Origin: a virus
DNA length: 64,000 nucleotides
Direction: 5' to 3' (one strand)
Virus record (IMG/VR): IMGVR_UViG_3300024999_000040
Location: 1 to 64,000 of that record
Positions 24,340-64,000 of this stretch are shown here, in pieces. Positions within the stretch are counted from its first letter, which is position 1. Each line of letters begins with the position of its first letter. The position numbers were made by a program, and so were the translations under genes. The notes beneath the pieces were generated by a model that was not told the origin of the DNA, searched no databases, and saw nothing but the letters and a program-made list of their open reading frames with translations.

Positions 24340-24615
24340 AATGCGAAAGCATTTTTGAAGTGGAGGCTTGGAGTAGAAATACTCTGTAGCAGTTGATTAG
24401 CCTCAGTAGTGAAAACTACTACGTTATGGGAAAATATATAGGTACTTCAGGATACTCCACAAGTCCTGAACTCTACGGTCTAAGACTAAACATCTCTGAG
24501 GGTAAGGAGAAGTGTTTTGGACATTAAACTTCCTAATAACATTGGCGATGTGGCTCGACCTTTATCTTTATGCTAAAGGCATTATTTATTAAGTTAAATA
24601 AAGGAGGTATTAAAG
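24325..24615 (+). ncRNA. Omega-RNA of IscB 1
   Basis: About 290 nt without an ORF sits directly 5' of iscB, where known omega-RNAs are encoded. It holds successive stems: the end hairpin, GGAGTA-GAAA-TACTC, TAGTAG(T)GAAAACTACTA, and a CAGGA...TCCTG helix. ACTACTACGTTATGGG is comparable to the GCTACGTTGTTTAGG of the second element. The 15-20 nt before the left hairpin would be the guide. Confidence 0.6.
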
Positions 24616-25990: not shown

Positions 25991-26546
25991 GGCTACTCTG
26001 ACACAAAACTGATAGAGATAGTTTTATAAGCCAATGAATTCGGTCTTTTAACGTGTTTTACTTGATGGCGGGTATGCCAACCGAAATTATCCATTAAAAC
26101 CACAACGACAACATCATAGCACCCCAAAATAAGCTTGGTTGTACGACAGTGGGAGGATAAAACACACAAATAGTTTGTTGATGTCAAATTTGTGTGAAGA
26201 GAAATCAACCATGATACACGTATAGTTGCCTGTCGTATGTGTAAAGTGAATCCTGCTTGGAATAAGCAACAGGAGAAAATCTAAACATCTATAAGGTCGG
26301 AAATGGTTCCCGACACACTTTTGTAATCGAATTCAAAATAATGGAGTGGCTTCGTTCGTTTTGAGTTTGTGAGAAAGTATCTGAGATGCAGGATATGCCG
26401 CCCTGCTGTAGATGTTTGGAAATCTATATAGAGCTTTAGGCTCAATCTTATTTTTATTGTAGAAGGAAACATCCGCATGTCTATACGATTTGCGGATATT
26501 TTCGTGTGTAATAAAATAAAAAAATAAAACAACGGAGGTGGAACGA
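25991..26546 (+). other. Structured non-coding region upstream of recombinase
   Basis: No coding frame is convincing. Several hairpins are visible: GTCGG/CCGAC (near 26297), a 9-bp AATTCAAAA/TTTTGAGTT stem around 26330-26375, GCAGG/CCTGC (near 26395) and ATCCGCA/TGCGGAT with a T-rich tail (26470-26505), the last a likely terminator. The remaining sequence may contain a second structured RNA or remains of the gene broken by IscB 1. Confidence 0.4.
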
Positions 26547-28434: not shown

Positions 28435-29730
28435 ATGGCTAACGACAACTCACAACTTTCCATATTATTACGTGCTAAATTGGATTCCGCACAAGAATCA
28501 TTAAAATCAATAAATTTAGAAATTGATAAGCTTTCTAAAAACCCTGCTTTAAGTAAGTTAAAATTAAAAATTGACATTGATACTAAAAGTGTTGAAGATT
28601 TATTATCTAAGATAAATAAATTACAAGCTGGATTTAATGGCTCTGGTGGTGGAACTGGTTCTAAACCTTTTATAGATGATAATTTAGTAACTGAAAAAAT
28701 TCAAAGAATCAATAATTCTCTTGAACGGTTAAAAATAAATAAAGATAAAGTTTTTGCTGATGTAGGAGTAATAGCAGAAGTTAACAGACTTAAAGAAATG
28801 GAAACTTCATTTAAAAAAGGTGAAGTTACTGCTAGACAATATGCATTACAAATGGATAATGTACGGACTAAAGTTGCTCAAGTTTCTGGTTCGTTTCAAA
28901 ACGTAAATAAAGATGGGTATTCATTTGTTCAAATGCTTGAACTTGCTGCAAAAAAAATAGCAATTTGGGGCTTGAGTACTCAATTGGTGTACGGAAGTTT
29001 CAAACAACTAAAACAGGGAATTTCTTACATTTCCGAATTATCGAATTTTCTCAACGAGATTCAAATTGTAACAAATAGAACTAGTTCTGAAGTTGATAAT
29101 CTAGCAAAAAGTTATAATAACCTTGCAAGAGAAATGAAAGTTACTACAAAAGAGATTGCAGGAGAAGCAGCAAATTTGTACAGACAAGGTTTGGATGATA
29201 CTCAGGTCGAAGAAAGAATGAAGGGTATTATTCAGTATGCGAAGATAAGCAGTATTTCTTTGGCTGATTCTAATAAAATTATAACTGCTACTGCTAATGC
29301 AACTGGACAGTCAATTCAAAAAATTATAGATATTTTTGCATTATTGGGAGATACTACCAGCTCAGGTGCAGATGAAATTGGTGAAGCCCTACAGAGAGTG
29401 GCTTCTGCTGCTGAAAATAGCAATCTATCTTTAGAGAAAACTTCAAGCTGGTTGGCAACAATTTCTAGTATTTCCAGAGAAAGTTCATCAACTATAGGAC
29501 GTTCTTTAAATAGCATTATTTCACGATATGAATCTATAAAAGCTAAAGGCTTTAATGAAGAAGACGCTACAAAAATTAATGATGTTACTAAAGCTCTTTC
29601 TGCAATTAAAATAAATCCCACAGTAAATGGACAATTACGTGATTTGGCTGAAGTTATGGATGAAGTAGGTTCTAAGTGGGATGGATTAACTAAAAATGAA
29701 AAGGCATATATAGCTACTACGATGGCGGGT
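28435..29730 (+). CDS. Tape measure protein, exon 1
   Basis: 432 residues ending exactly at GGT of MAG. An N-terminal coiled coil (KLDSAQESLKSINLEIDKLS) leads into the conserved TMP_TMED-type core (LYRQGLDDTQVEERMKGIIQ, ATANATGQSIQKI, TTSSGADEIGEALQRVASAA, GRSLNSIISRYESI, KNEKAYIATTMAG). Tape measure proteins set tail length and pass through the membrane during DNA entry. The reading frame meets a stop two codons into the intron, and joining to 30706 restores ...TTMAG-TFQRNRF, the usual continuous sequence of this family. RBS AAAGGATG before the ATG. Confidence 0.9.
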
Positions 29731-30705
29731 TAACAAAAAAAGCCCTTTTATACAGTAATGTATATCAATAGTGAACCATATCGGTGAAAGTCTTAGCCGT
29801 AAAGGTCGGAAGATAACGCCGAGATAAGAAATATATAAATATAATGGAGGTAGAATGAGATGAAAAATACATCTTTGTTATCTAATCAATTAGAAATAAT
29901 ATTAGGTGGTCTTTTAGGGGATAGTTCAATTAGAAAAAATACTAATCAAATTAATTTTGGTCATTCAGAAAAACAGTTCGAATATTTAAGTTGGAAACAT
30001 AATGAATTAAAAAGCATAAGTACAAATATAACAAAAGTATTAGTAGATAATAAATATATACGATATAATTTTGAAACTTTAAAAAAAGTTAGTGAAGAAT
30101 TTAAATTTATATCATTATTAATATTTGATAAATTTGGTAAAAAAAGAGTTAATAGAAAATGGTTGAATCAATTAACTCCTTTATCTTTAGCTATATGGTG
30201 GATGGATGATGGTTGTTTATCAATACATAAAGGCAACAGATATGGTAAATTATGTACTCATTGCTTTTCATATGAAGAGCATGAAATAATGAAACAATAT
30301 TTTAAAGTTAAATGGGATATTGATATTCAAATTAAATTAGAAAAAAATGAATATTATTTTTGTAGATTAAATGTAGAAAATTTAAAAAAATTAATAAGTA
30401 TTATATACCCCTATATAATACTTATACCTAATATGATTTATAAAATTGATTTAAATTATATTAACAATGTTAATTTAGGAGATTTTGAAGTAATATATAA
30501 TATTATAAAAAATTCTAAATTAACATAATATATATTTCAATCTTAACGACTGAATGTTCACCTCCTATTTTATAGGATGAAGTCACAGTCTGAACATCTA
30601 TGGAAACATAGAGAGTTGAGGTCAAGTGTAAAGACACTTTTAAGAAGAACCTTAACCACCATATATTAATATGGTCAGTAAGCGAAAGCTGAAAGTAACA
30701 GAATG
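29731..30705 (+). other. Group I intron in tape measure gene
   Basis: 975 nt. The 5' exon ends GCGGGT and its GGGT pairs with GCCC at 29742-29745, with the obligatory U.G at the splice site (P1). The intron ends in G (GAATG). Core elements are visible: GGTGAAAGTCTTAGCC...GGTCGGAAGATAACGCCGAG (P4-P6 side, 29780-29825) and GACTGAATGTTCACC...AGTCTGAACATC (P3/P7 side, 30548-30600). Splicing joins codons GGT and ACA without frame change. The LAGLIDADG gene sits in a peripheral loop. Confidence 0.85.
29860..30528 (+). CDS. LAGLIDADG homing endonuclease, intron-encoded
   Basis: 222 residues with two LAGLIDADG motifs: LGGLLGDSS (about 15-23) and LAIWWMDDG (about 110-118), each ending in the catalytic acidic residue, separated by the expected alpha-beta-beta-alpha spacing. 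It would cut the intronless tape measure allele and drive intron homing. GGAGG precedes the ATG. The gene is inside the intron, after its P4-P6 region, and is more A+T-rich than the exons. Confidence 0.9.
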   Translation: MKNTSLLSNQLEIILGGLLGDSSIRKNTNQINFGHSEKQFEYLSWKHNELKSISTNITKVLVDNKYIRYNFETLKKVSEEFKFISLLIFDKFGKKRVNRKWLNQLTPLSLAIWWMDDGCLSIHKGNRYGKLCTHCFSYEEHEIMKQYFKVKWDIDIQIKLEKNEYYFCRLNVENLKKLISIIYPYIILIPNMIYKIDLNYINNVNLGDFEVIYNIIKNSKLT

Positions 30706-33700
30706 ACATTCCAACGTAATAGATTTATAACCCTCATGAATAATTATGATGATTCTCTTAAAAATTATGAGAATGCTATGAATTCAGCAGGGACAGCTTC
30801 TCAGAAGTTCGCTATTTACCAAGATTCTGTTCAGGCAAAATTGGATGAAGTAACTGCATCATGGGAAGGATTTTGGCAAAATAGTATTAATTCTTCTGTA
30901 ATAAAAACAGTGTTAGAATTATTATCTCAATTAATAGATGGATTTGATAATGTCGGTAGAATAATATTAATTACTTCTGGAATATTTATTGCATTTAAAT
31001 CTAAGGCAATTATTGATTTTATTGTTGGTATTGCCGCCACTATAAAAGGGTTATTTACTTTTACGGCTGCTGCTAACGGTGCTGCCGTTGCTGCTTCTAC
31101 TTTTCAAAAAGCATTAGGTATATTTGGATTAATTACAACTGCCATTACTTTACTGGTTGTTGCTATTGATACACTATCAAATAAACAGGAAAATCTTAAT
31201 AAACAAATTCAAGAAAATATTAATAAATATCAACAACAAAAATCAGCTATAGATCAATTAATTTCATCATATAAACAAAATGCCGAATTAGCAAAAACAG
31301 ATGAAGATGCTAAAAATACTCTTTATGATATTCAAGCTGAATTAGTTACAATATTTGGAGAAAGTGCCAAAGCAATAGATTTAGAAAGTGGTGCTATTGA
31401 TGATAATATTGTCAAGATTAAAGAATTAAATAAAGTTAAATTACAAGAATTTTTAGATGCTAATAAAATAATTGCTGATGAAAATAAAAGAATATTGGCA
31501 GAGCAAAAGTTTGGCACGGCTAGTTTTGATGTTGGTACGTATGGTGCTTCTGTAGGAAAATTTATTACTAATGGTGATAATTTAACTCTTAAAGAATATA
31601 TAGATTCTTTAAAAAAATTAAGAAATGAGTTAAGTACTGGAGCATTACCTGATTATACAATTGATTCAATTAAAGGTGTTCAAAATTTAAACACAGAAAT
31701 TGACAAACAGGAAAAGAAATATAATGAACTAAATGGAATTATAGTTCAAGTTGATACAGCACAAAAACAATTAACTGGTTCAACTGAAAATACAGGTGAT
31801 GTAGTAGAAGATGCAGGAAATAAAATTCAAAAGTACACTCAAGACTTAGACGAACTAAATAAAGTTACCGATTCAGCACAATCCACCTTCAAAGATTTAT
31901 CCTCTATGTATGAACAGGTTAACGAAGGTCAAGAACTCAACAATGATCAAATGCTTGATTTAATTCAAAATTATCCTGTCGTTCTTAATTATATGGATTC
32001 TGAAGGTAATCTCCTAGTATCTCAAACAGATTTATTAAAGATTCTTTTTGAAGCCAAAAAAGCAGACCTTAAATTAACGCTTCAAACTGAGAAAGACAAA
32101 GCAGATGCAGTTATTAGAAGTTTAGAAGTTCAAAGAGATGCATATTTAGGGTTTTATAGTGCTATAGGAGCTACTTTAGGATATTCTGAAGAACAAGCAG
32201 CAACCATGTTTGGTTTTGATAAAGAATCGTATGATAAAGCAGTTGTGGCAGCTAAAGATGCACAGGCTAAAATTAATGCTTTAGATAAGTTGACTTTTAA
32301 GGATTATAGTGGTAAAAAAACTAGTTCTAGCGGTAAAGAAATAGATGCTAATCTCTCCCTTATCGAAAAGGACAGATATTCCCAACTAGAAGCCTCTCTA
32401 AATAAAACGGATGTTTTATTGGAAAAAAATAAAGCACTTCAAGCACTTCATGAAGATGATATTTCTTTAATGAAGGAGGAGCAACAACTTCTTAAACAGA
32501 AGCAAGATCAATTGCATCTCATAAATGAAGAACGCCGTAAAGAACGTGATGAACTTCAAAAATCTATGTCTTCTCAGGGGTTTAGTTTTAGTGGTACTGG
32601 GGACTCTACCTCTGTTGCAAATTACACAAATGTAATTAATAAACTTACTGATGATGTGAACAAACACAGAACCGATAAAGATAAAACTTATTACAATACT
32701 CTAAAACAACGTCTTGAAGATGCACAGAATAATTTTAAAAGATTTAATGAACTTCAGATTAATGAAATTCCTAAAGCATCTATTGAATGGTGGAATTTGC
32801 AAAAAGCTATAGGAGATGTTGATGCTCAGATTTTAGAGACAACTGAAAATCTTGCAGAAGAACGTCTTCAAAACTTAGCTGATGTTGAAAAACAACTTGT
32901 AGAAATTATCAAGCAAGGTGTTCAAGATAAGATTGACGTTTTAGAAAAAGAACATGATAAAGAAATGGAATTGCTTGAAGAACGTCATGATGCTCGTATT
33001 GAATCATATGAAGATGATTTAGATGAATTTGAGGATTACACTAATGAGAAATTAGGACTTCTTGAAGATCAATATGATGAAGAAGATTTTCTTAAAGAAC
33101 TTTCAAAGAAACGTAAAGAAGCTAATGAGATTCAGCAGAAAATAAATGAATTATCTCTTGATGATAGTCTTGAAGCTCGTACTAAAGTTGCTGAATTAGT
33201 AGAAGAATTAGCAGATAAAGAAACAGAAATTACTAAATTCAAAACTGATAGAGAACGTACATTAAGAAAAGATGGCTTATCTGATCAATTATCTGATTAT
33301 CAAAAATATATTCAAGAGTTGAAAGATAAAGAGAATGACAGATACGAAACTAAAAAAGATATTCTTGAAGATGAATATGAAGAAGATAAAACTCGTTTAA
33401 ACAAACAATTAGAAAATGAATCTTTATATGCTGAAGCCAGAAAATTATTAATGAATAGTACTTTGGAAGAAATTGCTGAAAAATTTGATTTGTTTTCAGA
33501 TAAATTTGGTGAAGGATTATCTGTTTTAGGAGATAAAATTCAAAACGAATTTATTGAAAAACTTAAAGATGCTTTAGCTTTAATTGAAGAAATGGGTGGA
33601 TTTGATATTGAAACTGGTACTTCTGGAAGTTCTTCAATTATAGATAAAATGAAACAAAATTCTGCTGCTTGGTTTGATGCTTCTGCTTCAGAAAAAGAAC

Positions 33701-34140
33701 GTCTTGCTAATGAAAATCTTGAATTGGGTACATCTCTAGGTTGGGTTCGTAAAGATGATGGGCATTGGTATAAACCAGATGGTACTAGAGCATATGCCAG
33801 TGGAACATTAAGTGCTAAAGCAGGATTAGCCAAAGTTAATGAACAAGGTACAGAACTTAGAGTTTTAAATTCTGGTGATGGTATTGTAAATGCTGGTTTG
33901 ACTAAGAATCTTATTGATTTTGCTAAAATTGCTCCTGATTTCTTGAATAATTTTAAGTTTCTTACTCCAAAATTACCTAATATATCAGGTGGTAATGGAA
34001 TGACAATTGATGCTTCTATTACAGTTGTTGGTAGTGTGGATAAGTCGTTTATGTCTCAATTGGAAAAATCTCAAAATAATCAACTCGATAAAATAATAAA
34101 GAGTGTAAGTAGGACTACTGTGGGTAGAGGGAGTTTTTAA
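30706..34140 (+). CDS. Tape measure protein, exon 2
   Basis: 1144 residues continuing from exon 1 (total about 1576). It begins TFQRNRFITLMNNYDDSLKN, has a hydrophobic pair of segments (IILITSGIFIAF, LGIFGLITTAITLLVVAI, about 85-165) that could be the membrane-inserting region, then a very long Lys/Glu coiled coil (about 560-960). The end (YASGTLSAKAGLAKVNEQGT, GDGIVNAGLTKNL) is typical of Firmicute tape measure C-termini. No muramidase or peptidase motif is seen. The next gene is Dit. Confidence 0.92.
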   Translation, partial: TFQRNRFITLMNNYDDSLKNYENAMNSAGTASQKFAIYQDSVQAKLDEVTASWEGFWQNSINSSVIKTVLELLSQLIDGFDNVGRIILITSGIFIAFKSKAIIDFIVGIAATIKGLFTFTAAANGAAVAASTFQKALGIFGLITTAITLLVVAIDTLSNKQENLNKQIQENINKYQQQKSAIDQLISSYKQNAELAKTDEDAKNTLYDIQAELVTIFGESAKAIDLESGAIDDNIVKIKELNKVKLQEFLDANKIIADENKRILAEQKFGTASFDVGTYGASVGKFITNGDNLTLKEYIDSLKKLRNELSTGALPDYTIDSIKGVQNLNTEIDKQEKKYNELNGIIVQVDTAQKQLTGSTENTGDVVEDAGNKIQKYTQDLDELNKVTDSAQSTFKDLSSMYEQVNEGQELNNDQMLDLIQNYPVVLNYMDSEGNLLVSQTDLLKILFEAKKADLKLTLQTEKDKADAVIRSLEVQRDAYLGFYSAIGATLGYSEEQAATMFGFDKESYDKAVVAAKDAQAKINALDKLTFKDYSGKKTSSSGKEIDANLSLIEKDRYSQLEASLNKTDVLLEKNKALQALHEDDISLMKEEQQLLKQKQDQLHLINEERRKERDELQKSMSSQGFSFSGTGDSTSVANYTNVINKLTDDVNKHRTDKDKTYYNTLKQRLEDAQNNFKRFNELQINEIPKASIEWWNLQKAIGDVDAQILETTENLAEERLQNLADVEKQLVEIIKQGVQDKIDVLEKEHDKEMELLEERHDARIESYEDDLDEFEDYTNEKLGLLEDQYDEEDFLKELSKKRKEANEIQQKINELSLDDSLEARTKVAELVEELADKETEITKFKTDRERTLRKDGLSDQLSDYQKYIQELKDKENDRYETKKDILEDEYEEDKTRLNKQLENESLYAEARKLLMNSTLEEIAEKFDLFSDKFGEGLSVLGDKIQNEFIEKLKDALALIEEMGGFDIETGTSGSSSIIDKMKQNSAAWFDASASEKERLANENLELGTSLGWVRKDDGHWYKPDGTRAYASGTLSAKAGLAKVNEQGTELRVLNSGDGIVNAGLTKNLIDFAKIAPDFLNNFKFLTPKLPNISGGNGMTIDASITVVGSVDKSFMSQLEKSQNNQLDKIIKSVSRTTVGRGSF

Positions 34141-44358: not shown

Positions 44359-44429
44359 TGTGTGGAAATTTCTCAGTAAATTAAGTAAATATAATAATAC
44401 AATTTTATTAGGAAAAGAGGTAGCAATAG

Positions 44430-44655
44430 TCAACCACCCACGACCCTAAAGGGTCGGGGCTTGCAAAAGTCTGATTGACTAGACTAAGCGAAAAGCTACG
44501 TTGTTTAGGTCATGATACCCAAGAATATTTATCCTAGTTCTTGGCTCTATCGTATAGTATTAAAAGTTCTAAGAGGTAGGAACGGTGTACTATATACAAC
44601 AAGCCTTTACAACATTGTCTAAGGATATTAACTCTAATATACGGAGGTTTTAAAA
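44430..44655 (+). ncRNA. Omega-RNA of IscB 2
   Basis: About 220 nt with stacked stems and GCGAAAAGCTACGTTGTTTAG, matching in part the corresponding segment of the first element; also AGTTCTTGGC/TCCTAGTT and AGAGGTAGGAACGG pieces. It ends a few bases before the iscB GGAGG. Confidence 0.6.
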
Positions 44656-44660
44656 ACAAA

Positions 44661-45899
44661 ATGGTATATGTATTAAATATTCAAGGCAATCCAATTATGC
44701 CTTGTAAAGAAGCAAAAGCAAGAAAGTTACTTAGAGACAATCTTGCAAGAGTAATTAAGAAAGAACCTTTCACTATTCAATTGATTTTTGAATGTGAAAA
44801 TCAAGTGCAAGATATTACTCTTGGAATTGATGCAGGAAGTAAGATAATAGGTATATCTGCTACTACTGATAAACAAGAATTATATTCATCAGAGGTTGAA
44901 TTGAGGAATGATATTGTAGATTTACTGGCTACTCGTAGACAAAATAGACGCACAAGAAGAAACAGACTTAGATATAGAAAAGCTAGGTTTCTCAATCGTG
45001 TAGGTAGTAAAAACAAAGGATGGCTTGCACCTAGTATTGAAAACAAAATACAAACACATTTGAGTATTGTTGAGAAACTTTATAAGATACTGCCTATATC
45101 TAAAATTATAGTTGAAGTAGCATCATTTGATATTCAAAAGATTAAGAATCCTGATATACAGGGTGAAGAATATCAGCAAGGTGAAATGATGGGATGGAAT
45201 GCAAGAGAATATGTATTATTCAGGGATGGACACCAATGTCAAGGTAAAAAAGGTTGTAAGAATAAAATATTACGAACACATCATATAGAATCAAGGAAGA
45301 CAGGGGGAGATACACCGAATAATCTAATAACTTTATGTAAAGAATGTCATGATGATTATCATTTAGGTAAATTAAAACTTAATCTAAAACGTGGCAAATC
45401 ATTTAGAGATGCGGCTTTTATGGGTATTATGAGATGGGCATTTTATAATAAACTTAAAGAAATATATCCCAATGTAAGTTTGACATATGGGTATATAACT
45501 AAGAACACAAGAATTGAAAATAAACTACCAAAAGAACATAGGATTGATGCATTGTGCATTAGTGGTAATCCATTAGTTAAAAGATTGGATAGCTATTATT
45601 ATATTAAGCAAGTAAGAAAACACAATAGACAAATACACAAAGCAAATATCTTAAAAGGTGGAATCAAAAAACTAAATCAAGCACCATATGAGGTAAAAGG
45701 ATTTAGATTATTTGATAAGGTCAAATACAAAGGACAGGAGTGTTTTATATTTGGAAGAAGAAGTAGTGGATATTTTGATTTGAGAAAACTTGATAGAACA
45801 AGTATTCATAAATCTGCAAGTTATAAGGATTTAGAATTAGTAAGTAAAAGAAATAGTTTATTAATTGAGAGGAGAAAGGCGATTCCTCCACTCCCCTAA
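44661..45899 (+). CDS. iscB: IscB RNA-guided nuclease, element 2
   Basis: 412 residues. PLMP domain variant (GNPIMPC), RuvC-I (LGIDAGSK, Asp57), bridge helix (RRQNRRTRRNRLRYRKARF), RuvC-II (IIVEVASFD), HNH (CKNKILRTHHIESRKTGGD, NNLITLCKECHDDYH), RuvC-III (EHRIDALCIS) and a C-terminal domain with GFRLFDKVKYKGQECFIFGR. It is only moderately similar to IscB 1, so the two elements arrived separately. All catalytic residues are present. GGAGG precedes the ATG. Confidence 0.92.
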   Translation: MVYVLNIQGNPIMPCKEAKARKLLRDNLARVIKKEPFTIQLIFECENQVQDITLGIDAGSKIIGISATTDKQELYSSEVELRNDIVDLLATRRQNRRTRRNRLRYRKARFLNRVGSKNKGWLAPSIENKIQTHLSIVEKLYKILPISKIIVEVASFDIQKIKNPDIQGEEYQQGEMMGWNAREYVLFRDGHQCQGKKGCKNKILRTHHIESRKTGGDTPNNLITLCKECHDDYHLGKLKLNLKRGKSFRDAAFMGIMRWAFYNKLKEIYPNVSLTYGYITKNTRIENKLPKEHRIDALCISGNPLVKRLDSYYYIKQVRKHNRQIHKANILKGGIKKLNQAPYEVKGFRLFDKVKYKGQECFIFGRRSSGYFDLRKLDRTSIHKSASYKDLELVSKRNSLLIERRKAIPPLP

Positions 45900-55389: not shown

Positions 55390-56586
55390 TTACATATCAT
55401 CCAATAAATCAATAGCCTTATTTTTTTGTTCTTGAATTAAATGTATATATGTTTCATAAGTTATTCTCACATCTGCATGACCTAACAATTCACTTACGGT
55501 TTTTACATCTATTCCTTTTTTAAAAAGCATGGAAGCAAAAGTATGTCTTAATACATGAAGTCCTTTATGCTTAATCCCTGCTCTCTCTAAAATAGCATCA
55601 AAAGTATTTTGTAAATTCCTTGGTCTTATTGGTGTATTATTGTTTGTAAAAAATATATAGCTATCTGGTGTATAATGATACATCTTATTAAGTTCTATAA
55701 GAGCATTTAAAGCCTTTTTACTTAACTGTATTGATCTATTTCCTTTTGGGGTTTTTGTGGTATCTTGGTGAACCATAATATTTTTGGGAGATGATTCATC
55801 TTTTCGTTTTCTATTTTTGGTTATAATGATACTGTTCTTCACATTTATTCTTTTATTTTCGATATCAACATCTAACCATCTTAATGCTAATGCTTCAGAC
55901 ATTCTTACACCGATATAGAGCATTAATATAAATCCATATCCTTTTTTAAATATGAATTCGTTATTATTATATTTTGTCAAACATACTTCTTCAAATTTTT
56001 CTTTTTCATTATCAGTAAATATTTCAATCTCTTTCTTTTTAAATTTAGAAGAAGAAGGTTTGGTTACTGTATTAACAGGATTAAATATTACCTTTCTATT
56101 GTCAGCAGCATATTTCATACAAGCATTGATGGCATCATAAGCTTTTTTTATTGATGAGTAAGACTTTCCATCTTCCACCATTTTATTGATTAATTCTTCC
56201 TGTATAACAGGTGCTGTAAGTTTATTTAATTCATAATGTCCAATATTTGGTATTATATGATTATTAATGGTTGATTCTAATCTATCATATGATAATGGTT
56301 TAAGATCATTTGTTTTTGTTAATTTTAGCCAACTTAAAATATAATCTTTTAAAGTATCGTTTGCTAAGTTATCTAATCCTTGAGATTGTAATAAATGATA
56401 TTCTTTTAATTTTGCCACAACTTCTTTTCGTTCTTTTCCATAAAAAGTTTTAATGATAGGTGTTCCTGATTCAGAAGTACCAGTTTGAATTTTTGCACAC
56501 CAACGATCATCTTTTCTTTGGAATATACTTCCTTCTCCATTTCCTCTCCTAGTATTTTTCTTTTCTTTTATTGTTTTTTCCTTCAT
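55390..56586 (-). CDS. int: Phage integrase (tyrosine recombinase)
   Basis: About 398 residues. The start is taken as ATG 56586; the GTG at 56595 is part of the GAGGTG ribosome binding site. N-terminal AP2-like arm-binding domain (GEGSIFQRKDDRWCAKIQTG), SAM-like core-binding domain (about 60-160), catalytic domain with Arg (GVRMSEALALRWLDVD), HVLRHTFASMLF (His-x-x-Arg), LGHADVRITYETYIH (His and Tyr). It recombines attP with the 3' end of tRNA-Cys. An ACCTCATG/CATGAGGT inverted repeat covers its ribosome binding site. Confidence 0.93.
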   Translation of the reverse strand: MKEKTIKEKKNTRRGNGEGSIFQRKDDRWCAKIQTGTSESGTPIIKTFYGKERKEVVAKLKEYHLLQSQGLDNLANDTLKDYILSWLKLTKTNDLKPLSYDRLESTINNHIIPNIGHYELNKLTAPVIQEELINKMVEDGKSYSSIKKAYDAINACMKYAADNRKVIFNPVNTVTKPSSSKFKKKEIEIFTDNEKEKFEEVCLTKYNNNEFIFKKGYGFILMLYIGVRMSEALALRWLDVDIENKRINVKNSIIITKNRKRKDESSPKNIMVHQDTTKTPKGNRSIQLSKKALNALIELNKMYHYTPDSYIFFTNNNTPIRPRNLQNTFDAILERAGIKHKGLHVLRHTFASMLFKKGIDVKTVSELLGHADVRITYETYIHLIQEQKNKAIDLLDDM

Positions 56587-56593
56587 TATTTTC

Positions 56594-56619
56594 ACCTCAT
56601 GAAAATTATAACATGAGGT
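56594..56619. promoter_or_regulatory. Inverted repeat over the integrase ribosome binding site
   Basis: ACCTCATG (56594-56601), 10 bp, CATGAGGT (56612-56619): a perfect 8-bp dyad that could bind a repressor or hide the Shine-Dalgarno in an RNA hairpin. Confidence 0.5.
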
Positions 56620-56775: not shown

Positions 56776-56784
56776 CGTTTATTT

Positions 56785-56832
56785 TGGAGGCGCCACCCAG
56801 ATTCGGACTGGGGATAAAGGTTTTGCAGACCT
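56785..56832 (-). tRNA. 3' half of tRNA-Cys (attachment core)
   Basis: Read on the minus strand: GAGGTCTGCAAAACC (anticodon GCA), variable loop, CCCAG-TCCGAAT-CTGGG T-arm, GGCGCC, TCCA. The 5' half (D-arm and 5' acceptor strand) is absent; the sequence to the right is unrelated. It is a fragment, not a working gene. Confidence 0.85.
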
Positions 56833-56927: not shown

Positions 56928-57134
56928 CTATTTATTACACCAAAACTTTTCTGCTTGTTTATTAAACCATTCATCAACCTTGTTCTCTATTATATAGTAT
57001 TTACCACCAATTTTTAAAGCAGGAAAATCTTTGCGTTTAGCCAAAGCACGAACAGCATGTATTCCTATAATTTCTTTTTTATCTTTATTTAGATATTCAT
57101 ATAACTTCTGTGGGGTTATTAATATATTTTCCAT
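56928..57134 (-). CDS. xis: Excisionase-like DNA-binding protein
   Basis: 68 residues with a MerR/HTH_17-type fold: LITPQKLYEYLNKDKKEIIG, then IHAVRALAKRKDFPALKIGG and KYYIIENKVDEWFNKQAE. This is the standard form of Tn916-type and clostridial phage excisionases, which bend att DNA and direct the integrase toward excision. It is transcribed toward the integrase but the att core lies between them. Its last codons cover a right-arm repeat. Confidence 0.75.
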   Translation of the reverse strand: MENILITPQKLYEYLNKDKKEIIGIHAVRALAKRKDFPALKIGGKYYIIENKVDEWFNKQAEKFWCNK

Positions 57135-57181
57135 GGTTTTGTCCTTATCTATGTATAATATATTTGTATCGTAGATATCAT

Positions 57182-57433
57182 TTAAAAATTAAATGCTTTT
57201 GCAAAAGCGTCAAGATCATCAATAATAAACAAGTCACTACTCCAATTCCCAGGCCAAACAGCATATAATGTTGTATCTTTTTTTACTGCTCGTAAATAAG
57301 ATTCAAAAACTCCTTGTTTATCAGACTTATTTTTATGATGAATATGATTTGTATTACCCTGTTTATCGACCTCAAAGTAACAAACTGTTTTCATATTATA
57401 TGGAAAATTATCTGATTCCTTTGCACTTCTCAT
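57182..57433 (-). CDS. Hypothetical protein, 83 aa
   Basis: From ATG 57433 with AAAGGAGA upstream and an AAATATAATA element before it. The sequence (YFEVDKQGNTNHIHHKNKSD, YLRAVKKDTTLYAVWPGNWS, then LFIIDDLDAFAKAF) looks like a small alpha/beta protein with a W-P-G-x-W loop. No family is recognised. It is transcribed with the genes between cas3 and xis, a location where accessory or anti-defence genes would be expected. Confidence 0.5.
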   Translation of the reverse strand: MRSAKESDNFPYNMKTVCYFEVDKQGNTNHIHHKNKSDKQGVFESYLRAVKKDTTLYAVWPGNWSSDLFIIDDLDAFAKAFNF

Positions 57434-57449
57434 TTTATTTTATCTCCTT

Positions 57450-57497
57450 TATTATATTTACTCGCTTTACCCCATAAAATTGGCTTTTTATTGTCTT
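57450..57497. repeat. AAATATAATA element plus dispersed palindrome, copy 10
   Basis: Minus-strand AAATATAATAA (57460-57450) just before the ribosome binding site of the 83-aa gene; ACCCCATAAAATTGGCTTTT continues to TATTGTCTT (57469-57497). Both motifs of the tail region occur here on the CRISPR side. Confidence 0.55.
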
Positions 57498-57898
57498 ATA
57501 TCTCTCGGTTTTTTAATTTCAATTTTCATTGATTCATCTTGATTCTTTCTTACTGTCTGCCATGAATTGGATTGATCATTTTTATAATTCCAAGGAACAT
57601 AGAAAGTAAAATTAGAGTTGTCTTCATAACAAATAGCTACAGCAGTAATATCTCCACCTGTAAATATTCTTTCGGAAAATGGCTTGCTCCATTCCCAATA
57701 TGCTTTTATATCCTTTAAATTCTTAACAGATAATAAAAAACTATAAGCTCTAAGAGATGTAGAACAATCACCATAATCACCTTGAATATAGTATTTTTTT
57801 TTAAATCCATCAACATTCATTCTGTCTATACATTTAGCAGGTATTATATAATACTCAGAATTTTCTAATGTAACCTCAATACATTTAAATTTTTTCAT
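57488..57898 (-). CDS. Hypothetical protein, 136 aa
   Basis: No family is recognised. A compact beta-rich protein (CIEVTLENSEYYIIPAKCID, FKKKYYIQGDYGDCSTS) with a W-E-W-S-K-P-F-S segment and a basic C-terminus. GAGAAA(TATG) and an AAATATAATA element lie upstream. It is 65 bp downstream of cas3 and separated from it by a palindrome. A role with the CRISPR system (or against one) is only a guess from position. Confidence 0.5.
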   Translation of the reverse strand: MKKFKCIEVTLENSEYYIIPAKCIDRMNVDGFKKKYYIQGDYGDCSTSLRAYSFLLSVKNLKDIKAYWEWSKPFSERIFTGGDITAVAICYEDNSNFTFYVPWNYKNDQSNSWQTVRKNQDESMKIEIKKPRDIRQ

Positions 57899-57913
57899 AT
57901 TTTCTCCTTTAAT

Positions 57914-57961
57914 TATTATATTTATTTTATTTACACACTATAAAAATTGATTTTTATTGGG
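57914..57961. repeat. AAATATAATA element plus dispersed palindrome, copy 11
   Basis: Minus-strand AAATATAATA (57923-57914); CACTATAAAAATTGATTTTT continues to ATTGGG (57936-57961), three bases after the cas3 stop codon. Confidence 0.6.
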
Positions 57962-57963
57962 TT

Positions 57964-59994
57964 TTATTCAAACTTACTTATATCTAAACCTATATCTTCA
58001 TTGTAGTTTATATAGCAAATATCATTATTATCTATTAATCCCTTTTGTTTTAACTTGTAATATTGTCCTTTGCTTAAATTTACAGTCAGACTATTTGCAG
58101 TTAAATAATCATTATTAGCAATATAGGTATCATATTCGTTTTTTAGATTGATACATATTACTGAATAATTATCTCCTTCAATCATTTTGTCACTATAATT
58201 CTTATCATAATGAGATACTTTATATTCATTTATAACTGAATTAACATATAAATTTGCATATTTATTATAAGTTTCAATATCCATATTTTGATATACATGA
58301 TTTAAATATTCTTGTACTTTATTTTCATTAAGGATATCAATGTTTTGTATAGTTTTACAGGTATTGTTTAATATTTCTTTATCGTAAAATGGTATATTTT
58401 TGTAATCACAATTATATATGTATATATTTTTGATATCAGTTACTATTCTTTTTCTATTTACCCTTCCAAATCTTTGAATTAATGAATCTATAGGAGCAAT
58501 TTCTGTATATAATTCATCATAATCTATATTTAAACTCACTTCTAATGCTTGGGTTCCTATAAGTAATTTTATATTGTTTGATTTATCGTATAATTCTTTT
58601 TCTATCCTTTCTCTACTTCGAGCATTAAATTTACCATGTAACATCTTAATATTTATCTTATTATGAATACAAAATTTTTCAAAATAGTAATAAGTGTCAA
58701 TAGCTTTCTGTACTGTATTAACACATATCAATACTTTTTTATTTGTGCTTAATAATTGATTTTTTATATGTTCAAAATCATTTTCTATAAAATAATTTTT
58801 ATAATGCAATTTATGTCTTTGTATATAGTTCTCTTTTATTGTAGGAGATATTATCTTATATATACTTAGTTTATTTTGAATTAAATCTATTAATGGTTGC
58901 GGTATACTTGCACTCATGATACATATACTAATATTATAGTTATCTTTTAAATATTTTAAACTCTCTAATATATAACAAAGAGTTTTGGTATCAAAAGCAT
59001 GTATTTCATCAATTATAAAAATAGAATTTTCAAACATAGATAATATCATTTCACTAAATTTACAATTAAAGAATGCTTTAACTATTTGAAATATTGTACA
59101 TACTGTAACTTGTTTAATTAAGTTTTTAAATGTTTGATATTCTTGTTTTACATTTATATTATCTAATTCTTTTGATAAAAAATATTCAGCTTTACTATGT
59201 AACATTCCAACATCTATTCCTTCATTTTTTAATCTTGTATACATAGCATTTATACTCGCTGTAAAAGGCAATATATAATATATTCTTCTACTCTTTGTTT
59301 GATTTTGAATAGAATTAGACCAAAATAAACTTGCTTCTGTTTTCCCTAGTCCTGTACGACCTATTAACAAACAATCTTCTTTAGTTTGTTTGCAAACCTG
59401 TTGCATTGAATTATATGAATCAAATTTAAATATTTCTGTAGTATTTAATCCAGTACTTATTTTAGTAATATTAGCTGATGCTAAATGGTCACATTGATTC
59501 AATATTCCTTTATGTAATATAGCTTGTTTAGATTTTAATAATTCCTCATTCTTTATGTATTCTAATATTTTAGGTTTAATATCTAAAGTGTCTATATTAT
59601 CTGATTTACTTTTAAAATTTTCTAGTTCTTGTTGATATGATTTTTCCTGTCTAGGAGTTTGTATTAATCCATATAAGTCATTTAATGTTTTATGGTGTGT
59701 AATAATACTTAACCTTTGAATTTCAGTTAAATCAATTAAACTAGCACTTAATATTTCATGTCTACATTTTCTAAATTTAGAAGTAATATTCTCTTGAAAA
59801 TCATCAGTTATTTTACCTATATCATGATAAAGAATTGATTTTCTTAACAACAAATATTCTTTATGAGATAAATTGAGTATAGTTTTCAATTGTTTTAATA
59901 CTTTGAATAATTTTTTATTGTGTTCAAATATAGTTTCATTATTTGATTTAGCTTTGTATTTTTTAAGTATCTTATTAACTTGTTGTGTTTTCAT
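57964..59994 (-). CDS. cas3: Cas3 helicase-nuclease (HD at N-terminus)
   Basis: About 676 residues; the start is ATG 59994 with AAAGGAGA 7 bp upstream (the in-frame TTG at 60015 lacks a site). HD nuclease: YHDIGK (His57-Asp58), CRHEILSA, THHKTL, QCDHLASAN. SF2 helicase: GRTGLGKTE (Walker A, 212-219), FIIDEIHAFD (DExH), IMSASIP, then GTQALEVSLNIDYD and LIQRFGRVNR (motif VI). It unwinds and degrades DNA recruited by Cascade. All key residues are intact. The array ends 28 bp upstream of its start, so both may share a transcript. Confidence 0.93.
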   Translation of the reverse strand: MKTQQVNKILKKYKAKSNNETIFEHNKKLFKVLKQLKTILNLSHKEYLLLRKSILYHDIGKITDDFQENITSKFRKCRHEILSASLIDLTEIQRLSIITHHKTLNDLYGLIQTPRQEKSYQQELENFKSKSDNIDTLDIKPKILEYIKNEELLKSKQAILHKGILNQCDHLASANITKISTGLNTTEIFKFDSYNSMQQVCKQTKEDCLLIGRTGLGKTEASLFWSNSIQNQTKSRRIYYILPFTASINAMYTRLKNEGIDVGMLHSKAEYFLSKELDNINVKQEYQTFKNLIKQVTVCTIFQIVKAFFNCKFSEMILSMFENSIFIIDEIHAFDTKTLCYILESLKYLKDNYNISICIMSASIPQPLIDLIQNKLSIYKIISPTIKENYIQRHKLHYKNYFIENDFEHIKNQLLSTNKKVLICVNTVQKAIDTYYYFEKFCIHNKINIKMLHGKFNARSRERIEKELYDKSNNIKLLIGTQALEVSLNIDYDELYTEIAPIDSLIQRFGRVNRKRIVTDIKNIYIYNCDYKNIPFYDKEILNNTCKTIQNIDILNENKVQEYLNHVYQNMDIETYNKYANLYVNSVINEYKVSHYDKNYSDKMIEGDNYSVICINLKNEYDTYIANNDYLTANSLTVNLSKGQYYKLKQKGLIDNNDICYINYNEDIGLDISKFE

Positions 59995-60022
59995 AGTTCT
60001 CCTTTTCATTAACAAAAAATAG

Positions 60023-60907
60023 TCTATAATATATAATATTCAAATTAAAACCGCTTGCCAAAAAGTTGAAGCTGTATAGTAAGGATTATTTATAATATAC
60101 AATATTTAAATTAAAACTTGCAAGCTCAATAAGCACAAAGAAGGTCGTTGGGCATTTATAATATATAGTATTTAAATTAAAACTTTCCAACTTATACCAA
60201 ATGATGGTAATTACTGACACATTTATAATATACAATATTTAAATTAAAACTGATGAAACTAGAGCACTTGATGTAGCTACGAACTTTATAATATATAATA
60301 TTTAAATTAAAATAATCTACAATTTGGGTGAGAGTCTAGTCCAGGAATGTTTATAATATACAATATTTCAATTAAAACGTGGAGCGTAGTAGGATAATTG
60401 TTTTTTGGAACATAATTTATAATATATAATATTTAAATTAAAACGTCTAAACCTGCATCAGTTAGCATTTTATCAAATTCATTTATAATATATAATATTC
60501 AAATTAAAACTGGTAAAGCTGTTAGTAATTGTAAGATAACGGTTGTGTTTATAATATATAGTATTCAAATTAAAACCAGATTGCTTGGGATATGGTATAT
60601 GTGAATTTACATTATTTATAATATATAGTATTTAAATTAAAATAAGGAATTTCCAGTTATCAGCAGTCTGATTTTCGTCATTTATAATATATAGTATTTA
60701 AATTAAAACATTATTTAAAAATGAAAATTATCAAATTCCTGATTGATTTATAATATACAATATTTAAATTAAAACCATATCATATCAATTTGCACAAATA
60801 GTTTATGATATATTTATAATATACAATATTTAAATTAAAACAAGTACTGGAATTAATAAGATATATGTGAAAGCGAAATTTATAATATACAATATTCTAA
60901 TTAAAAC
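60023..60907 (-). CRISPR. CRISPR array, 14 repeats of 29 bp, 13 spacers
   Basis: Plus-strand repeat words TTTATAATATA(C/T)A(A/G)TATT followed by (T/C)AAATTAAAAC start at 60023, 60089, 60155, 60222, 60285, 60350, 60416, 60482, 60548, 60615, 60681, 60747, 60813 and 60879. Spacers are 34-38 nt, mostly 37. Read on the minus strand the repeat begins GTTTTA and ends ATAAA, like clostridial I-B repeats. The repeat nearest cas3 is degenerate at that end (TCTATAAT), as expected for the leader-distal repeat; both favour minus-strand transcription from the 61 kb side. Repeats at 60285 and 60615 end in T instead of C. Three middle variants (ACAAT, ATAAT, ATAGT) coexist. Confidence 0.95.
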
Positions 60908-61107
60908 CCATCGTATTTACAAGCCTTATTATTAAAGGCTTTTAGATACTAAAACTATCGATGTATTATTAAATTATCAAAGTTCACATATATTTTACAA
61001 AAATCAAACAAACTAAAGTTCATAGCTATTGATTCTAGTAGGGTTATAATACTTTGTCGATGCATTGGTATTTTTGCATTATATTACATCGACAAAGTAT
61101 TCTTTAA
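60908..61107 (-). promoter_or_regulatory. CRISPR leader and cas7 3' region
   Basis: 200 bp without a gene. It contains an AAGCCTT/AAGGCTT hairpin (60919-60943) and a 14-bp inverted repeat ATACTTTGTCGATG ... CATCGACAAAGTAT (61050-61100) just after the cas7 stop, a probable terminator. The stretch between them is A+T-rich and is the likely leader for minus-strand array transcription. There is no room for cas5. Confidence 0.55.
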
Positions 61108-62172
61108 TTATATTAATGTATTCTTTAAATATTCAATATAATTATCATAAGTTTTTCCGATAGTAGAAATTATAATTCTTTCATCACCTTCAAAAGTATC
61201 TTTTAAATCTTGTTCTAATTCACCCATAAATCCAGACCTAATGCCTATATATATCTTTGAAATTCTGAATTCTTCATTGTCATCAATGGTTTGTTTTAAA
61301 TATTCAAGATTTAATTTATTCTCTCTAAATATATTACAGAATATTCCACCGCCAATACTATAATCAGCAAGTATTGTAAATTTACTATTTAAATCTTCCA
61401 AATGATTTCCAACATCAGTTCTTAAATGTTGAATTGCTTTTAATGTATGAGAAATTCTATTAAATCTTTCATCTTTACTCAATAGAATATTACCATTTTT
61501 ATCTGCTTGTATTCCTAAAGTAGATAATTCATTTGGTAAAAAATCTACATAACCACATTCATCAGGTTTAATAGTGAATTGTCCAACTCTATCTACTTCA
61601 AAACAGAAAGGCATTGACATTTTACAAGAATAAACTTCTTTAGTATATAATATATTATTAGAATTTGTTTTTTTTGTGCAAAATTCTTCTTGAATCGTAG
61701 TATGTCCTATTGCTTGTAAAGACGAGATAAATAAACATTTATATCTTTTTTTAGTCATAGCTCTAGTATATTTTTTACCCTTTTCTTCGTATAAAGATTG
61801 CTTTTCTTTTGACAATAAATCATAATCTTTTTTATTGATCTCAATAGTTTTAGCTCTCATAAAGCCCATGACATCTTCATCATAATTTATATATGGATTT
61901 GCTTCTATAATAACTGTTTGTTTATCAGCTTCTCCATCTAACTCAATATTTGAGTTCTTATGTCCATATGTATCCCTTACAATTATCTTAATACAATATT
62001 TCATATTTTGAGGACTAGCATATGGGAAAATACCTTCATTACTTTTAATTTTCTTGACATAACTTTTATTTGTAGTCCCTCCTGTAGCTTTTCCTTCAAC
62101 TTCTTTACTGCTCATGTTTAACCTTGCATTTCTCGTTTCTATTGCTGTAATTCCCTGCAAAAATCTTGTCAT
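61108..62172 (-). CDS. cas7: Cas7, type I-B (Cst2/DevR family)
   Basis: 354 residues. The Cas7 RNA-backbone signature is present: FLQGITAIETRNARLNMSSK, then FPYASPQNMKYCIKIIVRDT, EANPYINYDEDVMGFMRA, FISSLQAIGHTTIQEEF, the glycine-rich GQFTIKPDECGYVDFLP and ADYSIGGGIF. Multiple copies coat the crRNA in Cascade. AAAGGAGA precedes the ATG. It follows cas8 by 46 bp. Normally cas5 comes next; here the CRISPR array does. Confidence 0.88.
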   Translation of the reverse strand: MTRFLQGITAIETRNARLNMSSKEVEGKATGGTTNKSYVKKIKSNEGIFPYASPQNMKYCIKIIVRDTYGHKNSNIELDGEADKQTVIIEANPYINYDEDVMGFMRAKTIEINKKDYDLLSKEKQSLYEEKGKKYTRAMTKKRYKCLFISSLQAIGHTTIQEEFCTKKTNSNNILYTKEVYSCKMSMPFCFEVDRVGQFTIKPDECGYVDFLPNELSTLGIQADKNGNILLSKDERFNRISHTLKAIQHLRTDVGNHLEDLNSKFTILADYSIGGGIFCNIFRENKLNLEYLKQTIDDNEEFRISKIYIGIRSGFMGELEQDLKDTFEGDERIIISTIGKTYDNYIEYLKNTLI

Positions 62173-62218
62173 AACAATAATCTCCTTTTAAAAATTTTAT
62201 TTGAATTTATTTTAATAA

Positions 62219-63316
62219 TTACTGCATAGTTATTCTGAATTGAAGAGAAGTTTTATAATCTTTCCATTTTCTAAAATTTAAAACTTCTTCCATTTCATCT
62301 AAGTTAGATAGAATATTTAAACTTTCTTGATATTTAAGCAAAAAATCTTGAAATTTAGATTTATTATCACAACATCTTAGTTGTTTAGACAGTTCTTTAC
62401 TATCTTCTGATTCAAGTAACTTTATACATATCTTATTAACAATTTCTTTTTGCTTTTCTGTCATTTCATAATCCTCCAATAATTCATATAATTCTTTTGA
62501 GCAATTTTTATTATATTTTAATAATGTATTTGTAAAACTACTTTTATTTATCAAATTATAAAATAAACCTAGTTCAATAAATTCATGTAGTAATTGAGAT
62601 GATTTTAAATCTGATAATAAATTATAATCTTTTCTATTAAGAACTTTTTCATCATAAAAAACATTTTGTCCATTTGCAATGCAGTGTTGAGATAAGTAAT
62701 TTGAATTAAACATATCTTGAATTCGCTTTATATTTAAACAAGTTTCAATGTAATTATCAGTTTTCTTTATTTTAACATCAATTAATTGATTCTTGTCTAT
62801 TTTAAGTTGTTGTTGATTAGTTATATATCTCATGGCTTCATCTGAGTCACTATTATACAATATAGCAGAACCAATTCTTTGATTATTTAAAACACTTATT
62901 AAAGATAAATAAACACAAATCGGACATATATCTACATGCTTTAAATTACTAGCATGGTTAAAAAAAGTTTGTGATACCAAGTTAGCTATATATTTTCTAT
63001 CCACTTCTATATTAGTGTTAACTTGTTTTTCTCCACAGATTATACAATATTTATGATTAGATATATTATTTAATAATTCTCTCATAACTTCTTCTATGGA
63101 TTTTTTAGATTTAGTCTGAGTTAATATAGAATTAAAATGTGTTAATGCTTGACAAATGTCTACTCCTTCAGATTTTATTGCAGATTGTATTTTAGCACTT
63201 ATAATTTTATTATTTTCAAATAAATCTTGAATAGTAATTTCTGAATAAGGTTTCTTTATTATATTTTCTAAAACAAATAATCCATTATCAACTTGATAGT
63301 GATATGTTCTTTTCAT
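62219..63316 (-). CDS. cas8b: Cas8b-like large subunit (Cst1-type), short
   Basis: 365 residues, shorter than most Cas8b/Cst1 proteins (commonly about 450-600). It has a zinc-finger-like pair of Cys motifs (CIICGEK near 92 and CPICVYLS near 133), a helical C-terminal bundle (LYELLEDYEMTEKQKEIVNK), and SDLKSSQLLHEFIELGLFYN. The identity rests on the CxxC pattern and the position between cas6 and cas7. Cas8 recognises the PAM and recruits Cas3. Its ATG directly follows the cas6 stop with no gap. Confidence 0.75.
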   Translation of the reverse strand: MKRTYHYQVDNGLFVLENIIKKPYSEITIQDLFENNKIISAKIQSAIKSEGVDICQALTHFNSILTQTKSKKSIEEVMRELLNNISNHKYCIICGEKQVNTNIEVDRKYIANLVSQTFFNHASNLKHVDICPICVYLSLISVLNNQRIGSAILYNSDSDEAMRYITNQQQLKIDKNQLIDVKIKKTDNYIETCLNIKRIQDMFNSNYLSQHCIANGQNVFYDEKVLNRKDYNLLSDLKSSQLLHEFIELGLFYNLINKSSFTNTLLKYNKNCSKELYELLEDYEMTEKQKEIVNKICIKLLESEDSKELSKQLRCCDNKSKFQDFLLKYQESLNILSNLDEMEEVLNFRKWKDYKTSLQFRITMQ

Positions 63317-63997
63317 TTAAGCCTCTTTTCTGGAAGTTATATAACTTAAACATCCAGCTCCCGAACTTGAATTTTGTCCTAATCCTAAATAATATATTAT
63401 CTTTTGCATTTTAGGAGAAGTTTGCACCCACACATTATATATATAACCGTTATTGTAGATTTCTTTTACTTTAAAACTTTTTGATTTTATCTCATCTATA
63501 TCATCTATATCAAAGAAAATTTCACCTTTAAAATCTTCTTGATATATTAGTTTATACTTCCTTTTAGCATTTTCAATGAGATTTTTATAATATAAACTTT
63601 CATAAACCGTAAGAGTATATGGCTTACAATTATCATCTTTAGAAGTTTCTATTACTGGACTAAGAGCCTTATATAACATTATGTTATTAAAAAGTACTGA
63701 CTTATCAACTTTAATATCTTTTAATATAAATTCATTGTCTTGTAATTTTATTTTTTTTGCATGAAGAATACCCTTAATGATTTTTTTGATAATATCTTCT
63801 TTACCAGAAATAATAAGTTTTAATATTGTATATTTATTTATTTTTATACCTTGTTTTGTAAAATGAGCATTCTCAAATAATAAAGTGAAGTTAAATAATT
63901 TATATATATGTCCTGATTCAACTCTATAACCTTGATTATGTAACATTTTTTCTAATATTTGATCAGATATTGATAAATAATAGTAACAATTTTTCAT
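63317..63997 (-). CDS. cas6: Cas6 crRNA-processing endoribonuclease
   Basis: 226 residues, complete at the window edge (ATG 63997). It has the tandem ferredoxin-like plan: SGHIYKLFNFTLLF (His30 is a candidate catalytic residue), ILKDIKVDKSVLFNNIMLYK, ALSPVIET, and the C-terminal glycine-rich loop YYLGLGQNSSSGAGCLSY, the Cas6 hallmark. It cleaves the pre-crRNA within repeats. It is the first cas gene seen on this strand; whether more cas genes lie upstream cannot be seen. Confidence 0.88.
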   Translation of the reverse strand: MKNCYYYLSISDQILEKMLHNQGYRVESGHIYKLFNFTLLFENAHFTKQGIKINKYTILKLIISGKEDIIKKIIKGILHAKKIKLQDNEFILKDIKVDKSVLFNNIMLYKALSPVIETSKDDNCKPYTLTVYESLYYKNLIENAKRKYKLIYQEDFKGEIFFDIDDIDEIKSKSFKVKEIYNNGYIYNVWVQTSPKMQKIIYYLGLGQNSSSGAGCLSYITSRKEA

Positions 63998-64000
63998 AAC

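What the first reader, a model, noticed from the sequence alone, without database searches (positions are those of the whole stretch)
56928..63997. Phage-borne, compact type I-B CRISPR-Cas without Cas5 or adaptation genes
Seen: cas6, short cas8b, cas7, array and cas3 in one direction, with xis, int and an att site directly downstream. No cas1, cas2 or cas4 lies between cas3 and xis. The cas5 slot between cas7 and cas3 is taken by the array. Known: I-B Cascade normally needs Cas5 to hold the crRNA 5' handle. Inference: this is a reduced interference-only system carried by a phage or phage-plasmid, perhaps relying on host Cas1-Cas2, or with Cas8b or Cas6 taking over the Cas5 role. If cas5 is truly absent this would be an undescribed minimal I-B form.
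Basis: partly seen in the sequence, partly recalled or inferred. Interest (0 to 1): 0.88.

Follow-up and report, generated by a model that had tools for sequence, protein, structure and literature searches.

The report
Phage-carried CRISPR I-B lacking adaptation genes

Summary
The locus is real and phage-borne, but the headline claim fails. The window is the first 64 kb of a 148.7-kb IMG/VR phage record. Just beyond it, at 64080-64712 on the minus strand, lies a Cas5b gene (PADLOC Cas5b, E 4e-18). It overlaps cas6 by 11 bases, and consensus promoters lie upstream of it. The operon is cas5-cas6-cas8b-cas7-[array]-cas3. Cas5 is therefore the first gene and not missing.

The absence of cas1, cas2 and cas4 holds for the whole record, which may be a fragment. 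The phage context also holds: tail, lysis and replication genes lie on both sides, and integrase and xis flank an uninterrupted attP (the 3' half of tRNA-Cys).

Cas3 keeps its HD and helicase motifs. Cas8b is short (365 aa against 553-588 in bacterial relatives) and contains an internal GGAGG-ATG start that would make an 81-aa Cas11b. The array has 14 repeats and 13 spacers; no targets were found.

Adaptation-less type I systems on phages and proviruses are already published, and I found more in IMG/VR. A side pattern may matter: repeats here (10 variants among 14) and in several unrelated viral loci without adaptation genes are diversified, while arrays beside cas1 are nearly uniform.

The parts
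63317..64000 (-). cas6 (257 aa; the gene runs to record position 64090, beyond the window, and overlaps the end of cas5 by 11 bases). Just outside the window, in record coordinates: cas5 (Cas5b, 210 aa) at 64080-64712 (-) and a 12-of-12 sigma-70 consensus promoter at 64850-64879 (-), with a second site at 64737-64764
   Evidence: cas6: (TIGR01877 over cut-off; PADLOC Cas6b 6e-37; matches solved Cas6 structures; glycine-rich loop GLGQNSSSGAG). cas5: (PADLOC Cas5b 4.2e-18; NCBIfam Cas5 domain 47.9 bits over cut-off 17.8; TIGR01895 Cas5t E 1.6e-17 but below its cut-off). Promoter: consensus match only
62219..63316 (-). cas8b-like large subunit, short (365 aa), with CxxC...CxxC motif
   Evidence: PADLOC Cas8b E 7.7e-5 over residues 86-135; weak profile match (probability 29, E 6e-4) to four Cst1-type Cas8b proteins of 553-588 aa over the CxxC region; position between cas6 and cas7
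62219..62464 (-). Predicted internal start for Cas11b (81 aa) inside cas8b, GGAGG 8 bases before ATG
   Evidence: one of only 2 of 298 internal in-frame ATGs of long genes in this record with such a ribosome-binding site; inferred, not shown
61108..62172 (-). cas7 (Cst2/DevR type, 354 aa)
   Evidence: TIGR02585 over its cut-off (92.9 against 72.75 bits); profile matches the Cas7 of solved I-B Cascades
61048..61101 (-). 17-bp perfect hairpin between cas7 and the array; unique in the record; no T-run after it
   Evidence: z-score -5.3 for the 202-nt stretch
60908..61107 (-). Stretch between cas7 and the first repeat (putative leader, including the hairpin)
   Evidence: position only
60023..60907 (-). 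CRISPR array: 14 repeats of 29 bases (10 variants), 13 spacers of 34-38 bases; GTTTTAATT..AATA.T.TATATTATAAA
57964..59994 (-). cas3 (HD nuclease plus DExH helicase, 676 aa from the ATG with a ribosome-binding site); start 28 bases after the last repeat
   Evidence: PADLOC Cas3b 5.7e-152; TIGR01587 and TIGR01596 over cut-off; HD (H57, D58), Walker A and DEIH motifs intact
57488..57898 (-). ORF of 136 aa, unknown
   Evidence: no family over its cut-off
57182..57433 (-). ORF of 83 aa, unknown
   Evidence: no family over its cut-off
56928..57134 (-). xis-like excisionase (68 aa)
   Evidence: HTH_17 over cut-off; TIGR01764 excisionase weak (E 0.017)
56784..56832 (-). attP candidate: 3' half of a tRNA-Cys gene, not a whole tRNA
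   Evidence: 80-92% identical to records including annotated tRNA-Cys; ARAGORN finds no whole tRNA here
55390..56595 (-). Tyrosine integrase (398-401 aa)
   Evidence: Phage_integrase 1.3e-24

Best explanation
This is a self-contained, interference-only type I-B CRISPR-Cas cassette in a large integrating temperate phage. Cas5, Cas6, Cas7, a short Cas8b and probably an internally translated Cas11b would form a Cascade loaded with crRNAs cut by Cas6 from the array, and Cas3 would shred DNA matching one of 13 spacers. The array is probably transcribed in the same direction as the cas genes. Most likely it acts from the prophage or during infection against competing phages or plasmids, with a fixed spacer set that changes rarely because the phage lacks Cas1, Cas2 and Cas4. 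Shown from sequence: gene content and order, intact Cas3 motifs, the array, absence of adaptation genes in the record, phage context. Inferred: complex assembly, expression, Cas11b, and the targets.
For: Cas5b at 64080-64712 overlapping cas6. Cas6, Cas7 and Cas3 over curated cut-offs. Cas3 HD and helicase residues invariant with relatives. Cas7 profile matches Cas7 chains of solved I-B Cascades. Internal GGAGG-ATG in cas8b, 1 of 2 among 298 internal ATGs, in the part of the gene where I-B Cas11b is known to start (PMC11899642, PMC11096372). No Cas1, Cas2 or Cas4 in the record. Phage tape measure and tail genes, SPbeta-like tail matches, DNA polymerase shared with viral contigs. Integrase, xis and attP. 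Array changes fall in 6 of 29 positions and leave the other 23 untouched, which suggests the repeats are still under constraint.
Against: No protospacer found for any spacer, so the target class is unknown. Cas8b identity rests on a weak match plus position; its structure prediction failed (pLDDT 32). The repeat alone folds into no hairpin. No second phage with this same cas set was found.
Confidence: 0.8

Rival explanations
1. A truly Cas5-less minimal I-B system in which Cas8b or Cas6 holds the crRNA 5' handle.
For: Within the window no cas5 is seen.
Against: Cas5b is the next gene upstream, coupled to cas6 by an 11-base overlap.
Confidence: 0.02
2. The phage cassette borrows the host's Cas1-Cas2-Cas4 and so still adapts ('adaptive outsourcing', as proposed for haloarchaeal proviruses).
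For: Precedent in PMC12596717. Viral contig L016 has a run of 11 identical repeats followed by varied ones, as expected if spacers were recently added in trans.
Against: Here the repeats are mixed along the whole array, 10 variants among 14, with the leader-proximal repeat itself divergent. No genome in the species collection carries the repeat. The host is unknown.
Confidence: 0.25
3. The spacers silence or cut host genes or host-borne defence islands during infection, as ICP1 does, rather than rival phages.
For: Precedents: ICP1 type I-F against PLE (PMC11656645); huge-phage spacers against host genes (PMC7162821).
Against: No target found for any spacer, so there is no evidence either way. 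Cas3 is intact, which argues against pure silencing.
Confidence: 0.3
4. A decaying, non-functional passenger: an old bacterial I-B locus that lost adaptation genes and has drifting repeats.
For: Varied repeats; shortened and divergent Cas8b; no known targets.
Against: All genes are open with ribosome-binding sites; catalytic motifs are intact; changes in the repeats avoid 23 of 29 positions; a rare internal ribosome-binding site for Cas11b is present.
Confidence: 0.12

Closest known systems
Provirus-encoded type I-B systems without cas1, cas2 and cas4 in haloarchaea (Haloferax lucentense, Natrinema, Halobacterium; PMC12596717)
   Same: Type I-B effector genes with arrays on an integrating virus, adaptation genes absent
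   Different: Archaeal viruses; that study proposes that a co-resident plasmid system supplies adaptation. Here a bacterial phage, a short Cst1-like Cas8b, and the array lies between cas7 and cas3
Huge-phage CRISPR-Cas systems (PMC7162821), 'almost all' of which lack Cas1, Cas2 and Cas4
   Same: Phage-borne effector and array without acquisition genes
   Different: Those are on genomes above 200 kb and include other types (I-C variant, II, V); this is on a 149-kb record with SPbeta-like tail genes and a full I-B effector including Cas3
IMG/VR contigs L015 (160.9 kb) and L016/L017 (61.8/54.9 kb), found here
   Same: cas6, cas5, cas3, cas8b, cas7 and array with no Cas1 in the contig
   Different: Their cas genes are like those of the Flammeovirga plasmid (Bacteroidota) rather than Cst1/Cst2 type (shown for L015; similar layout in L016); gene order differs and the array lies at the end
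Bacterial Cst-type I-B loci (Lactobacillus intestinalis L014, Acetoanaerobium L010, Herpetosiphon L013, Runella L009, and the unverified 'Listeria phage' contig L011)
   Same: Cas3 26-30% identical; Cas7 20-23%; Cas5 matches; L014 even has a small array between cas5 and cas3
   Different: Those with annotation have cas1, cas2 and cas4; Cas8b is 553-588 aa in the four compared; cas5 follows cas7
Vibrio phage ICP1 type I-F system (PMC11656645)
   Same: A phage uses its own CRISPR-Cas
   Different: ICP1 is type I-F, has an adaptation module and known targets (PLE)

Membership tests
Type I CRISPR-Cas | Signature Cas3 HD nuclease-helicase with intact motifs | tested here: met
Type I CRISPR-Cas | CRISPR array with regular repeats and spacers next to the cas genes | tested here: met
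   14 repeats, 13 spacers
Subtype I-B | Cas7 of Cst2/DevR (I-B) type | tested here: met
   TIGR02585 92.9 bits, cut-off 72.75
Subtype I-B | Cas5b present | tested here: met
   PADLOC Cas5b 4e-18, Cas5 domain over cut-off; full-length TIGR01895 below cut-off; lies outside the window
Subtype I-B | Cas8b large subunit | tested here: inconclusive
   (E 7.7e-5 over the CxxC region), weak profile match, position; no NCBIfam model hit; structure prediction uninformative
Subtype I-B | Cas11b small subunit from an internal start in cas8b | tested here: inconclusive
   rare GGAGG-ATG at 62464; translation not shown
Subtype I-B | Adaptation module cas1, cas2, cas4 (complete systems) | tested here: not met
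   the record may be incomplete
Phage-borne adaptation-less CRISPR-Cas | Carried on a phage genome, not on a host chromosome | tested here: met
   148.7-kb virus record, phage genes on both sides, uninterrupted attP
Phage-borne adaptation-less CRISPR-Cas | Spacers target competing elements or host defence | tested here: inconclusive
   no targets found

The most novel reading that the evidence does not exclude
In phage-borne type I systems that have lost adaptation, the repeats are diversified at positions the crRNA-processing machinery tolerates, which would keep a fixed spacer set from being lost by repeat-repeat recombination. In this locus cas3 sits directly behind the array, so its mRNA may be released by Cas6 cutting, tying Cas3 supply to crRNA supply.
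Probability: 0.2. Interest if true: 0.6.

Novelty: new member of a known kind. Interest (0 to 1): 0.38.

Why it matters
It adds a bacterial temperate phage with SPbeta-like tail genes to the few reported viral type I-B systems without adaptation genes, and gives a compact, possibly complete I-B effector (short Cas8b, predicted internal Cas11b) that could be tested in a laboratory strain. If the contrast in repeat diversity between loci with and without adaptation genes holds in a systematic survey, it offers a way to tell frozen arrays from active ones by sequence alone. The Cas5-less claim, which gave the finding its high score, is not true.

Tried and rejected
Cas5-less reading: rejected by the sequence beyond 64000. 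Host-chromosome reading: rejected by phage genes on both sides and an uninterrupted attP. Search for sister cas loci with single proteins: nothing; the patterns chosen were not conserved ones, so the empty answers are weak. Repeat search in viral and species-representative genomes: nothing. Spacer targets in phages, plasmids, 17 related viral contigs, the record itself, and two exact IMG/VR scans: nothing beyond short or repeat-derived matches. The one search hits that I placed on the array lie largely in the A+T-rich repeats, not in spacers. LIBA6276 and pCd18_2 from Clostridioides carry a distant Cas3-like helicase with no other annotated cas gene nearby, so they are not comparable. 'Listeria phage' OR846720 has an I-B locus, but the record is an unverified unannotated contig and may be host DNA. 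AlphaFold2 of Cas8b failed for lack of homologues, so no fold search was run. Host naming was not possible: kin of a virus record are not drawn.
Full report
Check of the observation. The window is bases 1-64000 of a 148,716-bp IMG/VR virus record. ORFs and family searches confirm cas6 (TIGR01877 over cut-off), cas7 of Cst2/DevR type (TIGR02585, 92.9 bits), a Cas8b-like protein (PADLOC Cas8b, E 7.7e-5 over residues 86-135 only) and cas3 (PADLOC Cas3b 5.7e-152) on the minus strand, with an array of 14 repeats between cas7 and cas3. An xis-like gene and an integrase lie downstream, with two unknown ORFs in between.

cas5 is present. I took the rest of the record. The first gene to the right of the window, record 64080-64712 on the minus strand, is a 210-aa Cas5b (PADLOC Cas5b 4.2e-18; NCBIfam Cas5 domain over cut-off; the full-length Cas5t model scores 63.8, below its 96.7 cut-off). 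Its end overlaps the start of the full cas6 (64090) by 11 bases, and two strong sigma-70-like sites lie upstream of it, one matching 12 of 12.

No adaptation genes in the record. Pfam Cas1, Cas2 and Cas4 models give no match in the record while ringing in 9-10 control genomes each. The record has no end repeats, and two terminase models found nothing, so part of the phage may be missing; the control for phrog_2 rang in nearly every genome, so I give it little weight.

It is a phage. Tail tape measure and minor tail proteins, the latter with matches to SPbeta-like and other large Bacillus and Lactococcus phages, lie left of the locus. Replication and nucleotide genes lie right of it, and the DNA polymerase is 76-84% identical to that of several IMG/VR contigs. 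Outside that polymerase the relatives are mosaic, and none of the 17 carries a Cas3 detectable with our profile, though they are mostly fragments. Between integrase and xis lies the 3' half of a tRNA-Cys gene (tRNA-Cys is annotated under some of the matches) that is not a whole tRNA, as expected of an attP in the phage form rather than an integrated end.

Parts of the effector. Cas3 keeps the HD residues (H57, D58 and further histidines), Walker A and DEIH motifs, conserved with the relatives aligned. Cas7 with its relatives matches the Cas7 of solved I-B Cascades. Cas8b is 365 aa against 553-588 aa in four Cst1-type proteins, and aligns weakly with them around the CxxC pairs. In cas8b an in-frame ATG at 62464 has GGAGG 8 bases before it; only 2 of 298 internal ATGs of genes of 600 bases or more in this record have such a site. 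It would give an 81-aa C-terminal product. I-B Cas11b is known to be made this way in Haloferax volcanii and Synechocystis (PMC11899642, PMC11096372). This is a prediction. AlphaFold2 on the single Cas8b sequence gave pLDDT 32 and says nothing.

Array. On the minus strand the repeat is GTTTTAATT..AATA.T.TATATTATAAA, 29 bases, with spacers of 34-38 bases. It begins and ends like I-B repeats of comparison loci (GTTTT...TAAAT), so the array is probably transcribed with the cas genes; this is inference. No spacer matches another place in the record and no convincing target was found in phages, plasmids or related contigs. Only 2 of 13 spacers were scanned exactly in IMG/VR. Between cas7 and the array is a 17-bp perfect hairpin without a T-run, of unknown role. 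cas3 starts 28 bases after the last repeat, so it is probably read from the array transcript or from a promoter inside the array.

Repeat diversity. The 14 repeats come in 10 variants. The 23 differences between neighbours fall in only 6 of 29 positions, and none of 100,000 random placements was as concentrated. The 23 other positions never change. In the bacterial comparison loci (L009, L010, L012, L013) and the unverified contig L011 the long arrays have nearly uniform inner repeats (distinct fraction 0.01-0.09), while short ones reach 0.25-0.5. In viral contigs without Cas1 the fraction is 0.94 (L015) and 0.62-1.0 (L020), mixed in L071 (0.4-1.0), and low in L021 and L022 (0.10-0.14); L025 has cas2 and 0.13. 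The comparison is small, the arrays were picked because I had them, and array length is not matched. Drift without homogenisation by new repeat copies explains it as well as selection does.

Comparison with what is known. [quoted passage not shown] I found further adaptation-less viral type I loci, among them two that look like complete I-B effector sets (L015 and L016). An array between the Cascade genes and cas3 also occurs in Lactobacillus intestinalis (L014). This locus is therefore a new member of a known kind, distinguished by a short Cst1-like Cas8b, cas5 first, and diversified repeats.

Verdict. The Cas5-less claim is wrong; the phage-borne, interference-only I-B claim stands. Interest 0.38.

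Noticed in passing
window 24320-24559 + 24621-25961; 44429-44632 + 44661-45899; record 131916-133148 with RNA 133177-133383 (-): Three IscB-type genes (RRXRR plus HNH domains), each with an intact HEARO/omega RNA just upstream (Rfam 118-146 bits): three RNA-guided nuclease loci on the same phage as the CRISPR system.
   Followed up: partly
window 26286-26414: A skipping-rope RNA (RF02924, 63.6 bits, gathering 36.7) just upstream of a second tyrosine recombinase gene at 26547-27608.
   Followed up: no
record 137880-138800 (-), locus L006: A third tyrosine recombinase, 306 aa.
   Followed up: no
window 28435-34140: The tape measure region seems split by a 222-aa ORF at 29860-30528, a possible homing-endonuclease insertion; only the 30703-34140 part was matched to tape measure families.
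   Followed up: no
L016 10118-12302: A viral I-B locus without Cas1 whose array has 11 identical repeats at one end and varied ones after, suggesting recent spacer acquisition in trans.
   Followed up: no
L020 and L071: Viral contigs of 225 and 232 kb with Cas3-centred type I loci that resemble I-E in gene order, arrays on both sides of cas genes, varied repeats and no Cas1.
   Followed up: partly
window 61048-61101: A unique 17-bp perfect hairpin between cas7 and the array, not followed by a T-run; role unknown.
   Followed up: partly
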